Below, one piece after another: positions 1-4,295 of a stretch of 9,515 nucleotides of DNA (the first letter of the stretch is position 1; each line of letters begins with the position of its first letter). The DNA comes from Nitrospinota bacterium (lineage in GTDB: Bacteria; JADFOP01): the NCBI GenBank assembly GCA_022562795.1, contig JADFOP010000059.1, positions 1 through 9,515 of the forward strand, in the 5' to 3' direction. A program made the translations under genes and the position numbers. The notes beneath the pieces are model-generated. The model did no database searches. It was not told the origin of the DNA and worked only from the letters and a program-made list of their open reading frames with translations.

Positions 1-273
1 TACTTCTCCGTTTTCGACATAATTACCAACCTGCCAGCAGATACTGCCTCGCGGAGAGAGAATTCTCACACATTCTTTTATAACCTGGGCCTGTTGCTTT
101 AGGTATGTTTCAAGCTTTATCTTACGTTCGTAAGCTTTCCCGATATTATAGGGAGGTGACGTAACTACAAGTGCAGCTGCGCCATTGGGGATTTGTTGCA
201 GCAGATCGAGGCAAGACCCGTGATAAAGGACAACTTTAGCTTCACTTGAGTACGAACGTTCAATCAGCTGCAT
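1..273 (-). CDS. DNA methyltransferase, N4-cytosine type, N-terminal part (cut by window edge)
   Basis: Reading the minus strand from ATG at 273 gives 91 codons open to the window edge. Residues about 13-18 read KVVLYH, then GSCLDLL, the usual N-terminal motif of beta-class methyltransferases (often LYxGDxL). This is followed by VVTSPPYNIGKAYE, which is catalytic motif IV. SPPY is the form typical of N4-cytosine enzymes, whereas DPPY or NPPY is typical of N6-adenine enzymes. Further on, ILSPRGSICWQVGNYVENGE matches the segment that follows motif IV in this family. Motif IV lies near the N-terminus, so the SAM-binding motif I should lie beyond the edge. The start at 273 is about 33 nt below a promoter candidate. 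There is no clear Shine-Dalgarno sequence, and TTG at 294 is an alternative start. G+C is about 45%, well below the operons to the right, which suggests acquisition by transfer. It could belong to a restriction-modification system or be an orphan methylase; the neighbour to the left is not visible. Confidence 0.88.
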   Translation of the reverse strand, partial: MQLIERSYSSEAKVVLYHGSCLDLLQQIPNGAAALVVTSPPYNIGKAYERKIKLETYLKQQAQVIKECVRILSPRGSICWQVGNYVENGEV

Positions 274-312
274 GGCACATCTGGGGATATCCAATATGTT
301 GGACGTTTGATA

Positions 313-342
313 AATAAAAACACAAGATGTTGTGGATGTCAA
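313..342 (-). promoter_or_regulatory. Candidate sigma-70 promoter of the methyltransferase gene
   Basis: On the minus strand a perfect -35 TTGACA (342-337) is followed after 18 nt by TTTATT (318-313), which matches 4 of 6 positions of TATAAT. Transcription would begin near 306, leaving a leader of about 33 nt before ATG 273. The -35 box overlaps the only more distal in-frame TTG codon (342-340), which argues against an earlier start. Confidence 0.5.
321..334. promoter_or_regulatory. Inverted repeat inside the methyltransferase promoter spacer (candidate operator)
   Basis: CACAA (321-325), GATG, TTGTG (330-334) is a perfect 5-bp-arm inverted repeat. It lies exactly between the candidate -35 and -10 boxes, where a repressor or the methylase itself could block RNA polymerase. 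The arms are short, so chance is possible. Confidence 0.25.
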
Positions 343-612: not shown

Positions 613-1689
613 ATGACCGCCAAGAAGCGCTCGTTGATTATTTTATTGCTGTGCGCCGCCCTGGGGCTCGCTCTCGCCGTGGCCTCGGCCGCCTGGGGGC
701 AGAACCTCCGGGGATTTGCAATGCACAACGGCTTCGACCTCACCTATAGCTTGGTCCCCCGCGAAGAGATTCTTTCGGGCGGCCCGCCGAAGGACGGCAT
801 TCCGGCCCTCACCAGCCCCCGCTTCCTCAAGGCCGGCCAGGCCGGCTACCTCTTTGACGACGATCTGGTCGTCGGGGTGGTCTTCAACGAGGAAGCCCGG
901 GCCTATCCGCTTCGCATTCTGGTCTGGCACGAAAACGTCAACGATGTGGTGGGCGGCTTACCCATCGCAGTCACCTACTGCCCGCTTTGTAACTCGGCCT
1001 TCGTCTTCGACCGTAGGGTCGGCGGAGCCGTCCGGGAGTTCGGGGTAAGCGGGCTCCTTTGGAACTCCAACGTGTTGCTCTACGACCGCCAGCCAGACGA
1101 CCGCGCCGAAAGCCTGTGGAGCCAGGTTAAGATGGCCGCGGTGGCGGGGCCCGCCGCTCAAGCGGGCTTGCGGATGAGGTTATTGCCGTCGGAGCTAACC
1201 ACATGGCGAGAGTGGGTGGAGCGTCATCCAGCCTCCAATGTGCTTTCAGACCAGACAGGCTATCGTCGAAACTACGGAGTCTCGCCGTACGGCTCCTACT
1301 TCGCCACCGACCGGCTAATGTTCCCCGTCAGGGCGGGCCAGCCGCGCCCCGAGCGGTTTCGCAACAAGGAGCCCATGGTCCTCGTCCAGGCAGGAGAGGC
1401 GCTTAAGGCCTACGCCGTCCGTGACGTGGCGGCGGCAGCCGGGGATAACGGGTGGGTCGAAGATACCGTGGGCCGGAAGCGGCTTCGCCTAACCTATCTG
1501 GAAGCAGGCGACACCGTACGGGTCGAGACTCTCTCCGGCGAAGGTGAGCAGACGCCCGTGGCCTACGCCTTCTGGTTCGCCCTGAGCTCGATGCTGCCGG
1601 AGGTCGAGGTCTACGAGCCCCCCGCGGCGTCCGGGGCCGTGGCAAACAAGGGTCCCTCATCGCCATCGACCAGTCTGGCCCAAGAATGA
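613..1689 (+). CDS. Exported DUF3179 domain-containing protein
   Basis: A 358-residue protein. A basic N-terminus (MTAKKR) and a hydrophobic stretch (residues about 8-27) ending in ASAAWG form a signal peptide, so the mature protein should be exported. No canonical lipobox is seen: the cysteine at 14 follows Leu-Leu-Leu and lacks the small residue at -1. Residues about 60-335 match the DUF3179 family. Hallmarks are ARAYPLRILVWHENVNDVVGG (95-115), then the conserved VTYCPLCNSAFVF (120-132, with Cys123 and Cys126), GLLWNSNVLLYDR (147-159), ESLWSQ (166-171), and the C-terminal AFWFALSSMLPEVEVY (319-334). The biochemical function of DUF3179 is not established. The CPLC pair could bind a metal or act as a redox thiol pair, which is inference. 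It is the first gene of a four-gene plus-strand operon, and its TGA overlaps the next ATG (ATGA). Confidence 0.9.
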   Translation: MTAKKRSLIILLLCAALGLALAVASAAWGQNLRGFAMHNGFDLTYSLVPREEILSGGPPKDGIPALTSPRFLKAGQAGYLFDDDLVVGVVFNEEARAYPLRILVWHENVNDVVGGLPIAVTYCPLCNSAFVFDRRVGGAVREFGVSGLLWNSNVLLYDRQPDDRAESLWSQVKMAAVAGPAAQAGLRMRLLPSELTTWREWVERHPASNVLSDQTGYRRNYGVSPYGSYFATDRLMFPVRAGQPRPERFRNKEPMVLVQAGEALKAYAVRDVAAAAGDNGWVEDTVGRKRLRLTYLEAGDTVRVETLSGEGEQTPVAYAFWFALSSMLPEVEVYEPPAASGAVANKGPSSPSTSLAQE

Positions 1690-1886
1690 TAAAGGGCTCC
1701 CTGGCGCAGATCCAGAATATCCATACCGAAGAGTTGTACAACGGCCATGGCGAGTCGGCTCAAGCCGTGTTAAACTTCGTAAGTCGATACATCGGCAGGG
1801 AAGACAGAGATTACCTGGCCATGAAACCCTATAGCATCCACTATACCGACTACGACTGGTCCTTGAACGAGCAGCGGGAAGGATGA
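1686..1886 (+). CDS. Small hypothetical protein (66 aa) between DUF3179 and VTT genes
   Basis: I do not recognise this protein. It starts at ATG 1686 in an ATGA overlap with the DUF3179 stop and ends 4 nt before the next start, which is exactly where a translationally coupled operon gene would sit. It is soluble-looking, with no membrane segment, signal peptide or cysteine. It is rich in His and Tyr near the end (YSIHYTDYDW, residues 49-58) and has charged segments (SRYIGREDRDYL, 33-44). It appears less GC-rich than its neighbours. No strong Shine-Dalgarno sequence precedes the start, so translation would rely on re-initiation after DUF3179. It may instead be a non-coding remnant, but its perfect fit between two genes favours a real gene. 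Confidence 0.55.
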   Translation: MIKGSLAQIQNIHTEELYNGHGESAQAVLNFVSRYIGREDRDYLAMKPYSIHYTDYDWSLNEQREG

Positions 1887-1890
1887 GGCA

Positions 1891-2661
1891 ATGACAGGGG
1901 AGGAGCCCACTACGGCTCGGCCCTCGGCCCCGAGCCATCACGTCCATGCCTCCGGCTGGTGGCGGCCGGTTGGGCTTGTAGGGCTCATCGTCGCCATCCT
2001 GCTGCTTTCGAAGTTCTTCGGGCTCGGCGAGCGGCTGGGCGCCGTGCGCGACTGGATTGGCACGCTGGGGGCCTGGGGCCCCGCGGTTTTTGTTTTGATC
2101 TACGTTGCGGCGACCGTGGCGGCCGTGCCGGGCTCGGTCCTGACGGTGGGCGCGGGAGCCCTATTCGGCTCCATCCTGGGGGTCGTCCTGGTCAGTGTGG
2201 CCTCCACCCTGGGGGCCAGCCTCGCCTTTTTGGTCGCCCGATACTTCGCCAGAGACGCCGCCGCTAGGTGGTTCTCTAGCAACGAAAAGTTCCGTCGGCT
2301 CGATAGGCTCACCGAAGAGCACGGGGCGATAATCGTGGCGTTGACGCGGCTCACCCCCATCTTTCCCTTCAATCTGCTCAATTACGGTTTCGGACTCACC
2401 CGGGTGCCGTTCTCGACCTACGTCTTCTGGTCCTGGCTCTGCATGCTGCCGGGCACCGTGCTCTACGTCGTCGGGGCCGACGCCCTGGCCCGGGGTCTCT
2501 CCCAAGGCCGCCTCCCCTGGGGACTGGTCGGGGCGCTCGCGGGGGCTGGAGTGGTCCTGGCCCTCCTGATCCGCTACGCCCGCCGAACCCTTCAGGCGAA
2601 GGAAACAGATACGGTGGCCGAGGCCGCTTCCGCCAAGGTGGAGCCCTCCCACCATGCATGA
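1891..2661 (+). CDS. TVP38/TMEM64 (VTT/DedA-superfamily) integral membrane protein
   Basis: A 256-residue polytopic inner-membrane protein. There is a cytosolic-looking N-terminus (1-23) and a first membrane segment at about 26-46. The VTT core spans about 62-200, with AAVPGSVLTVGAGALFG (77-93), the Gly-rich GVVLVSVASTLGASLAFLVAR (97-117) and the re-entrant region LTRLTPIFPFNLLNYGFGLT (151-170). The last membrane segment is at about 210-228, followed by a hydrophilic tail. The LTRLTPIFPFNLLNY arginine-proline segment is diagnostic of the TVP38 group. DedA/VTT relatives are linked to lipid scrambling or transport; the substrate here is unknown. The start at 1891 is supported by AAGGA (1879-1883) 7 nt upstream. 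The stop overlaps the following oxidoreductase by 8 nt. Related genomes carry the same pair as one fused polypeptide, which supports a joint function. Confidence 0.9.
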   Translation: MTGEEPTTARPSAPSHHVHASGWWRPVGLVGLIVAILLLSKFFGLGERLGAVRDWIGTLGAWGPAVFVLIYVAATVAAVPGSVLTVGAGALFGSILGVVLVSVASTLGASLAFLVARYFARDAAARWFSSNEKFRRLDRLTEEHGAIIVALTRLTPIFPFNLLNYGFGLTRVPFSTYVFWSWLCMLPGTVLYVVGADALARGLSQGRLPWGLVGALAGAGVVLALLIRYARRTLQAKETDTVAEAASAKVEPSHHA

Positions 2662-4177
2662 TGTCCCGGACGTCCCTCCCCACGATGAGCACAACGCCGC
2701 TCTGGTGGCCAACGTCCACCCCCCCGACTGGAAGAACCCTGAGCCTGCGCCGCGCTACAACTTAGTCGTCATTGGAGCGGGGACAGCAGGCCTGGTGACC
2801 GCCGCGGGGGCGTCTCTCCTGGGAGCCAAGGTCGCCCTCGTGGAGCGGCACCTCTTGGGGGGAGACTGCCTGAACACGGGATGCGTGCCCTCGAAAAGCA
2901 TCATCCGCTCCGCGCGCTCCTTTGCCGACGTCCACGACGCCCACCGCTTCGGCGTTCGCGTCCCCGAGGGCACGGATGTCGATTTTGGCGCCGTCATGGA
3001 GCGGATGCGCCGCATCCGAAGTCGGATCAGCGCTCACGACTCAGCCCGGCGGTTTAAAGAAGAGTTTGGTGTGGACATCTTTCTGGGCGGTGCCCGGTTC
3101 GCGGGGCCTGAGACGGTCGAGGTCGAAGGCACTCCGCTGCGTTTCAAAAGAGCCGTCATCGCCACGGGGGCTCGGCCCGTTGAGCCGCCCATTGATGGCC
3201 TCCACGAAGCCGGCTACCTCACCAACGAGACCGTCTTCTCTCTAACGGAGCGGCCGGGCCGCCTGCTGGTGGTCGGTGGAGGCCCCTTGGGATGCGAGCT
3301 GGCACAGGCCTTCCGCCGATTGGGCTCCGAGGTGATCCTCGTGGAGATGGCCCCGCAGGTGCTCATCCGCGAGGACCCCGACGCGGCCCAGGTTCTGACC
3401 GAGGCATTGGCACGGGATGGGGTCTCGATCAAGTTAAATACGGTTGTTGGGAAGGTGGTCCTATCAGGCTCCGAGAAGCTCATCCACCTGGAGGGCGTCG
3501 GGGGCGAGGAGGTAGTCACGGTTGATGAGATTCTCCTCAGTGCCGGGCGCGCGCCCAACGTCGAGGGCCTCAACCTCGAGGCCGTCGGGGTCCGCTACGA
3601 TACGAAAGGCGGTGTGGTGGTCAACGACCACCTCCAGACTACCAACGGTCGCATCTACGCCGCAGGCGACGTCTGCATGGCCTACAGGTTCACCCACGCC
3701 GCCGACGCGGCCGCGCGCATCGTCATCCAAAACTCACTGTTTCTCGGGCGAAAGAGACTGAGCGGACTGACCATTCCCTGGTGCACCTACACTGACCCGG
3801 AGATTGCCCGCGTGGGGTTGAACGAAGAGGAGGCCCGCCAGCGGGGTGTCCCGGTCGAGACGTTCGTCAGGCCCCTTGCAGATGTGGACCGGGCCATCAC
3901 CGACGGCGATGAAGAGGGGTTCGTCAAAATTCACGTCAAGCGAGGCTCCGACACAATTCTCGGCGCCACAATCGTCGCCCGTCACGCGGGCGAGATGATC
4001 AGCCAGGTCACCCTGGCGATGGTTGGCAAGGTGGGTCTGAAGACCCTCTCCAACGTCATCCATCCCTACCCGACCCAGGCCGAGGCCATCAGGCAGGCGG
4101 CAGACGCCTACCAGAGAGGCCGCCTCACCCCCCGCCTCAAGAGGTTTTTGAGCCGATGGCTTACCTGGAGGCGATAG
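2654..4177 (+). CDS. FAD-dependent pyridine nucleotide-disulfide oxidoreductase, mercuric-reductase-like
   Basis: A 507-residue class I flavin disulfide reductase. The FAD-binding GAGTAG is at 41-46. The redox motif GGDCLNTGCVPSK spans 69-81, with active cysteines Cys72 and Cys77. A second Rossmann motif GGGPLG (208-213) has Glu231 ending its second strand, which favours NADH over NADPH. AAGDV (336-340) is the second FAD contact. The dimerisation domain follows, with TYTDPEIARVG (378-388) and the catalytic HPYPTQAE (His470, Glu477). It lacks the N-terminal heavy-metal domain and the C-terminal Cys-Cys pair of true MerA, so mercury reduction is not supported. It probably reduces a disulfide or another acceptor linked to its VTT partner. 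The N-terminal 33 residues precede the fold and may contact the membrane protein. AAGGTGGAG (2635-2643) is the likely ribosome binding site. Confidence 0.9.
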   Translation: MHDVPDVPPHDEHNAALVANVHPPDWKNPEPAPRYNLVVIGAGTAGLVTAAGASLLGAKVALVERHLLGGDCLNTGCVPSKSIIRSARSFADVHDAHRFGVRVPEGTDVDFGAVMERMRRIRSRISAHDSARRFKEEFGVDIFLGGARFAGPETVEVEGTPLRFKRAVIATGARPVEPPIDGLHEAGYLTNETVFSLTERPGRLLVVGGGPLGCELAQAFRRLGSEVILVEMAPQVLIREDPDAAQVLTEALARDGVSIKLNTVVGKVVLSGSEKLIHLEGVGGEEVVTVDEILLSAGRAPNVEGLNLEAVGVRYDTKGGVVVNDHLQTTNGRIYAAGDVCMAYRFTHAADAAARIVIQNSLFLGRKRLSGLTIPWCTYTDPEIARVGLNEEEARQRGVPVETFVRPLADVDRAITDGDEEGFVKIHVKRGSDTILGATIVARHAGEMISQVTLAMVGKVGLKTLSNVIHPYPTQAEAIRQAADAYQRGRLTPRLKRFLSRWLTWRR

Positions 4178-4256: not shown

Positions 4257-4295
4257 AAAAGAAACCGGGGCGGGCCGCGGAGGCGGCCCGCCCCG
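4257..4295 (-). terminator. Strong intrinsic terminator of the rpoD operon, between converging operons
   Basis: A perfect 13-bp GC stem (4266-4278 with 4283-4295) closes on a 4-nt loop. On the minus strand it is followed by TTTCTTTT (4264-4257), and it starts 22 nt after the rpoD stop. On the plus strand the run after the stem is weak (TTAATG). It may still stop transcripts of the oxidoreductase operon, which ends 88 nt away. Confidence 0.88.

What the first reader, a model, noticed from the sequence alone, without database searches (positions are those of the whole stretch)
613..4177. Tightly coupled four-gene envelope module: DUF3179, orphan small protein, VTT membrane protein, dithiol flavoenzyme
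The four genes are joined by a 4-nt overlap, a 4-nt gap and an 8-nt overlap. An exported protein with a CPLC pair, a polytopic VTT protein and a cytosolic disulfide reductase suggest a path for reducing equivalents or a lipid/quinone substrate across the membrane. Each family is known singly, and the VTT-flavoenzyme pair is known as a fusion, but DUF3179 has no assigned function. Linking it to this pair would be a new clue.
Basis: partly seen in the sequence, partly recalled or inferred. Interest (0 to 1): 0.6.

Follow-up and report, generated by a model that had tools for sequence, protein, structure and literature searches.

The report
Redox membrane operon with truncated DUF547
Four tightly packed bacterial genes turn out to be a widespread membrane-protein/redox-enzyme pair, the stub of a lost third partner (the supposed orphan gene), and a secreted thiol/selenol-type protein that sits beside this pair consistently only in this genus and rarely elsewhere.

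Summary
The four ORFs, their coordinates and the 4-nt overlap, 4-nt gap and 8-nt overlap are real. The reading changes in three ways. (1) The 'orphan small protein' is not an orphan. It is the in-frame C-terminal ~54 residues of a DUF547 protein whose exported N-terminal ~240 residues, including the conserved HxAxVCAxxxCPPLR motif, are missing here. The sister genome has the full gene in the same place, and no intact DUF547 gene is left in this genome. (2) DUF547-VTT-FAD reductase is a recurrent unit across phyla, strongly linked to the arsenosugar radical-SAM gene arsS (21 of 29 genomes with both have them within 10 kb). This genome has no arsS. (3) DUF3179 is not a regular partner: none of 53 DUF3179 loci outside the genus has VTT or the reductase within about 8 kb. 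It co-occurs with the reductase (odds ratio 12) and lies within 6 kb in 3 of 79 reductase loci (0.13 expected), so a weak association exists. DUF3179 is an already listed selenoprotein family; in-frame TGA codons fall on the first Cys of CPLC in about 20 homologues, the likely active nucleophile. The proposed electron path is untested. Verdict: ordinary variant, one lost member, modest lead.

The parts
613..1689 (+). DUF3179 protein, exported (signal-peptide-like N-terminus); CPLC at residues 123-126; internal duplication (residues ~78-146 and ~247-319), active-site-like residues only in the first repeat
   Evidence: PF11376 254.6 bits; alignment with read-through homologues: in-frame TGA at the first Cys of CPLC; repeat 1 vs repeat 2 hhalign 98.8%, E 8e-17; H106, E107, N110, C123 >=80% conserved
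1686..1886 (+). C-terminal remnant (~54 aa) of a DUF547 gene, the first-stage 'orphan'; DUF547 Pfam domain and N-terminal export region missing
   Evidence: tblastn to L018 (62%), L033 (49%), L035, L044, L051, L052, L067, L078, L097, L111 upstream of VTT/reductase; full DUF547 in L018/L033 (PF04784 95-98 bits); no DUF547 in the whole genome G000; alignments
1710..1735 (+). approximate deletion breakpoint: net loss of ~720 bp relative to the sister genome
   Evidence: distance from DUF3179 stop to the shared CAACGGCCAT: ~50 nt in window, ~770 nt in L018
1891..2661 (+). VTT-domain (DedA/TVP38 superfamily) membrane protein
   Evidence: PF09335 108.9 bits; adjacent to reductase in most homologous loci
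2654..4177 (+). FAD/NAD(P)-dependent pyridine nucleotide-disulfide oxidoreductase, GGDCLNTGCVPSK dithiol site, HPYPTQAE C-terminal acid-base pair; subfamily NF004991
   Evidence: NF004991 833 bits over cut-off 620; MerA and lipoamide dehydrogenase models below their cut-offs
4266..4295 (.). GC-rich 13-bp stem between the convergent reductase and rpoD genes (T-rich tail on the - strand only)

Best explanation
The locus is a lineage-specific version of a widespread cassette, DUF547-VTT-FAD reductase. Most likely it is a cytosolic NAD(P)H-dependent dithiol flavoenzyme held at the membrane through a VTT lipid-scramblase-type protein, working with an exported DUF547 protein, in a pathway that often (not here) includes the arsenosugar enzyme ArsS. 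In this genus an exported DUF3179 protein, a Cys/Sec-dependent redox-type protein, stands at the head of the transcription unit. In this genome the DUF547 gene then lost ~720 bp, leaving an in-frame C-terminal stub that keeps translational coupling of the operon. Shown: gene identities, linkage statistics, the truncation as assembled, and the Cys/Sec equivalence. Inferred: co-transcription, membrane tethering, the Cys/Sec as catalytic nucleophile, and that the stub itself has no catalytic function.
For: DUF547 C-terminus identity and truncation. Across 386 genomes, reductase-ArsS within 10 kb in 21 of 29 genomes with both (0.18 expected), reductase-DUF547 14 of 32, ArsS-DUF547 16 of 43. VTT hit in 55 of 80 reductase loci held and DUF547 in 15 of 80; DUF547-VTT and VTT-reductase fusions in L108 and L086. 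Neighbours match TIGR04167 ArsS, TIGR04282 and TIGR04283 glycosyltransferases over their cut-offs and ArsM-like methyltransferases. No ArsS over cut-off in G000 or G001. DUF3179 in-frame TGA aligned to the first Cys of CPLC, the second Cys variable, agreeing with its listing as a selenoprotein family with UxxC/T (PMC9312934, PMC13188914).
Against: No expression or biochemical data. The truncation comes from one draft assembly (contig 59) and could be an assembly error. About 40% of sampled reductase genomes lack ArsS (29 of 50 have it), so the arsenosugar link is not obligatory and the substrate is unknown. Low dN/dS of the stub (0.33, 54 codons) does not separate a selected mini-protein from a recent deletion.
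Confidence: 0.7

Rival explanations
1. A dedicated four-part envelope redox relay: the reductase passes electrons through VTT (or a lipid/quinone moved by it) to the CPLC/UPLC centre of exported DUF3179, with the small protein as an adaptor.
For: Tight gene packing kept in the sister genome; thiol/selenol character of DUF3179; co-occurrence of DUF3179 and the reductase, odds ratio 12; DUF3179 within 6 kb of the reductase in three further loci outside the genus.
Against: 0 of 53 DUF3179 loci outside the genus carry VTT or reductase within ~8 kb; 0 of 24 genomes with both within 10 kb; the small protein is a DUF547 stub; the second Cys of CPLC is often Thr, Ala, Ser or Glu, so a CxxC disulfide relay is not a family-wide feature.
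Confidence: 0.1
2. DUF3179 is an occasional accessory of arsenosugar-type clusters (with ArsM, ArsS, DUF547, VTT, reductase); the window keeps the accessory genes after losing, or without ever having, ArsS.
For: DUF3179-ArsM-like-Pst-type transporter genes-ArsS-DUF547 in L130; ArsM-like, PiT-like transporter, ArsS, DUF3179 in L152; ArsS with DUF3179 and reductase in L059 and L088. DUF3179 within 10 kb of ArsS in 2 of 21 genomes versus 0.16 expected. A Thiothrix plasmid DUF3179 lies near a gene annotated as arsenate reductase (azurin) small subunit, the name used for the arsenite oxidase small subunit.
Against: Small numbers; most DUF3179 loci have no such neighbours; no ArsS in G000 or G001; other plasmid DUF3179 genes sit near copper, chromate or unrelated genes.
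Confidence: 0.25
3. The small ORF is a selected mini-protein (domesticated DUF547 C-terminus) rather than debris.
For: Frame kept open, ATGA coupling to DUF3179, dN/dS 0.33 over 54 codons.
Against: Only one genome; the divergence from the sister cannot be placed before or after the deletion; the conserved Cys/His motif is gone.
Confidence: 0.15
4. The deletion is an assembly artefact and the genome really has a full DUF547 gene.
For: Single draft genome, 84 contigs; no reads available.
Against: The junction is clean and stays in frame, and no DUF547 domain match appears elsewhere in G000.
Confidence: 0.15

Closest known systems
COG0398 DedA/TVP38 proteins fused to pyridine nucleotide-disulfide oxidoreductase (PMC10127716)
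   Same: Same two domain families, here as adjacent overlapping genes; a fused version was found in L086
   Different: Separate genes here; COG subfamily of this VTT not tested by phylogeny
Arsenosugar-biosynthesis neighbourhood (ArsS TIGR04167, ArsM, TIGR04282/TIGR04283 glycosyltransferases)
   Same: The reductase, VTT and DUF547 genes are frequent neighbours of ArsS in other phyla
   Different: No ArsS in this genome or its sister; the two TIGR04283 genes of this genome lie on other contigs
DUF3179 (seleno)protein family PF11376
   Same: Full family match; Cys at the position used by Sec elsewhere
   Different: Cys form; the neighbourhood with VTT/reductase is found here and in the sister genome, only loosely elsewhere
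Mercuric reductase MerA (incl. cyanobacterial Slr1849, PMC6741143)
   Same: Same flavoenzyme family and redox-active CxxxxC
   Different: Below the TIGR02053 cut-off, no NmerA domain, no C-terminal Cys pair, no mer genes in the window; relation to Slr1849 not tested by sequence

Membership tests
DUF3179 (PF11376) | Pfam model over gathering score | tested here: met
   254.6 bits vs 27
DUF3179 (PF11376) | Cys/Sec-P-L motif in the first repeat with HE..ND | tested here: met
   H106, E107, N110, C123
DUF547 (PF04784), small ORF 1686-1886 | Pfam domain present | tested here: not met
   No Pfam hit to the 66-aa ORF even at E 10; only the region C-terminal of the domain remains
DUF547 (PF04784), small ORF 1686-1886 | Homology to the C-terminal part of full-length DUF547 proteins in the same operon position | tested here: met
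VTT/DedA (PF09335) | Pfam model over gathering score | tested here: met
   108.9 vs 33.9 bits
NF004991 FAD-containing oxidoreductase subfamily | NCBIfam cut-off | tested here: met
   833.4 vs 620 bits
Mercuric reductase MerA (TIGR02053) | NCBIfam equivalog cut-off | tested here: not met
   399.7 vs 454.45 bits
Mercuric reductase MerA (TIGR02053) | C-terminal vicinal Cys pair | tested here: not met
   No Cys near the C-terminus in the translation
Dihydrolipoyl dehydrogenase (TIGR01350) | NCBIfam equivalog cut-off | tested here: not met
   377.5 vs 408.8 bits
Arsenosugar biosynthesis cluster | ArsS (TIGR04167) over cut-off in the genome | tested here: not met
   Best 50 bits vs 300 in G000
Rieske-type domain (considered for DUF3179) | Profile-profile similarity to Rieske domains | tested here: inconclusive
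   Weak structural rows Z 3.0-3.5; hhalign probability 0.3%
Envelope electron relay (reductase-VTT-DUF3179) | Electron transfer between the three proteins | not testable with these tools
   Needs biochemistry or complex prediction

The most novel reading that the evidence does not exclude
DUF3179 is an exported Cys/Sec enzyme that serves, in several phyla, as an accessory of the ArsS-DUF547-VTT-reductase neighbourhood, so that a family without a function can be tied to arsenic (or a related organo-element) metabolism and to a membrane-bound reductase.
Probability: 0.2. Interest if true: 0.55.

Novelty: new variant of a known kind. Interest (0 to 1): 0.33.

Why it matters
It replaces a guess (orphan gene, new DUF3179 partner) with numbers. 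The robust unit is DUF547-VTT-reductase with ArsS; DUF3179 is at most an occasional companion. For anyone working on DUF3179 it points to the first Cys/Sec as the residue to mutate. For work on DedA/TVP38 proteins it supplies a cross-phylum gene partner set (DUF547, ArsS) that I did not find described in the papers searched. The literature search was limited to open papers, so absence there is weak evidence.

Tried and rejected
DUF3179 as a Rieske-like fold: suggested by weak structural rows, no support from profile comparison. Solved structures related by sequence: none for DUF3179 at E up to 1; for DUF547 only a chance-level hit to an unrelated protein, E 0.44. Foldseek with predicted models: no match with E below 0.001 for DUF3179 (mean pLDDT 69, only 5 sequences) or for full-length DUF547 (pLDDT 86); absence does not show a new fold. 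DUF3179 in viral contigs: none. Independent second sample of DUF3179 genomes (class of G280): only 14 genomes, too few to add. Reductase as mercuric reductase or lipoamide dehydrogenase: below both cut-offs. A complete arsenosugar pathway in this genome: no ArsS; the two TIGR04283 genes showed no ArsS, VTT or reductase nearby by eye. Literature for DUF547 with TVP38 or arsenosugar with TVP38: nothing relevant. dN/dS of the stub: uninformative.

Full report
What is there. The window is a whole 9515-bp contig (G000:C59) of a 2.15-Mb draft genome. Its only close relative among the 60 genomes sampled first is a genome of the same genus, and the matching public contig is titled 'Nitrospinae bacterium AH_259_B05_G02_I21'. 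The four ORFs at 613-1689, 1686-1886, 1891-2661 and 2654-4177 are confirmed, with the stated overlaps and gap. They are DUF3179, a small ORF, VTT and an FAD-dependent disulfide oxidoreductase of subfamily NF004991. Order and coupling are kept in the sister genome, followed by rpoD on the other strand.

The small protein is a gene stub. In the sister genome the interval between DUF3179 and VTT holds a full DUF547 gene (PF04784, 95 bits). The window's 66-aa ORF aligns with the last ~54 residues of it (61% identity). About 720 bp are missing in the window, including the export region and the conserved HxAxVCAxxxCPPLR motif. The same C-terminus is recognisable upstream of VTT-reductase pairs in about ten other loci from several phyla. 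A whole-genome search finds no DUF547 in G000 but two in the sister. The deletion rests on one draft assembly.

The robust module. Among 80 loci of the reductase family, a VTT gene was detected in 55 and DUF547 in 15. DUF547-VTT and VTT-reductase fusions occur (L108, L086). Recurrent neighbours are ArsS (TIGR04167) and the TIGR04282/TIGR04283 glycosyltransferases, with representatives over their curated cut-offs, together with ArsM-like methyltransferases. In 386 genomes sampled broadly, reductase and ArsS lie within 10 kb in 21 of the 29 genomes that have both (0.18 expected), reductase and DUF547 in 14 of 32, ArsS and DUF547 in 16 of 43. The expectations assume random placement in 4-Mb genomes and ignore relatedness. 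G000 and its sister have no ArsS, so the cassette here works without it or is a leftover.

DUF3179 is a loose companion. Of 53 DUF3179 loci outside the genus, none has VTT or the reductase within about 8 kb (some loci are cut short by contig ends). In 24 genomes with both DUF3179 and reductase, none has them within 10 kb. Yet the two co-occur in genomes (24 of 47 DUF3179 genomes against 26 of 337 others, odds ratio 12.5), and 3 of 79 reductase loci outside the genus have DUF3179 within 6 kb against 0.13 expected (L059, L086, L088). Two further loci have DUF3179 beside ArsM-like and ArsS genes (L130, L152). Co-occurrence is not corrected for phylogeny or genome size.

DUF3179 chemistry. In about 20 homologues read through a single in-frame TGA, the TGA falls on the first Cys of CPLC, while the fourth position may be Cys, Thr, Ala, Ser, Glu or others. 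This agrees with reviews that list DUF3179 as a selenoprotein family with UxxC/T. The first Cys/Sec is thus the likely nucleophile (inference), and a two-cysteine relay is not a family-wide feature. The protein is an internal duplication (hhalign 98.8%, E 8e-17); in the window protein the His-Glu, Asn-Asp and Cys-Pro-Leu positions conserved across the family lie in the first repeat. Structure prediction gave a moderate model (pLDDT 69) with no clear structural relative.

Most likely working. A cytosolic NAD(P)H-dependent dithiol flavoenzyme associated with a VTT lipid-scramblase-type membrane protein, originally with an exported DUF547 partner, plus an exported DUF3179 thiol protein present in this genus. 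The scramblase-type role of VTT is taken from what is known of DedA/TVP38 relatives (PMC10127716), not shown here. Substrates are unknown; the frequent ArsS neighbourhood makes arsenic or organo-element chemistry a lead, not a result.

Verdict. Ordinary in kind, with a corrected annotation and a modest, testable lead on DUF3179.

Noticed in passing
L021, L023, L024, L059, L121, L130: DUF3179 genes lie near an ECF sigma factor with a small zinc-finger-type anti-sigma gene in six loci; ECF sigma in about 10 of 56 DUF3179 loci versus 4 of 76 reductase loci without DUF3179 (P 0.02). The test is post hoc, seeded from one locus.
   Followed up: partly
613-1689 (protein residues 78-146 and 247-319): DUF3179 is an internal duplication; the family-wide conserved His-Glu and Cys/Sec residues lie in the first copy only.
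   Followed up: yes
L176:6672-7601: On a Thiothrix subterranea plasmid DUF3179 lies near a gene annotated as arsenate reductase (azurin) small subunit and next to a GDCCVxC (seleno)protein and a phosphonate C-P lyase operon.
   Followed up: no
L022:966-4376: DUF3179, a hydrolase-like gene and DUF547 lie in a co-directional run in an unrelated genome, a second case of DUF3179 and DUF547 within two genes.
   Followed up: partly
L074:4476-5912 and L108:2040-3764: VTT and DUF547 in one open reading frame (Pfam shows both in L108; in L074 only the VTT domain reaches Pfam's list).
   Followed up: partly
1-342 (minus): N-terminal part of a DNA N6/N4 methyltransferase (PF01555) cut by the contig end.
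   Followed up: no
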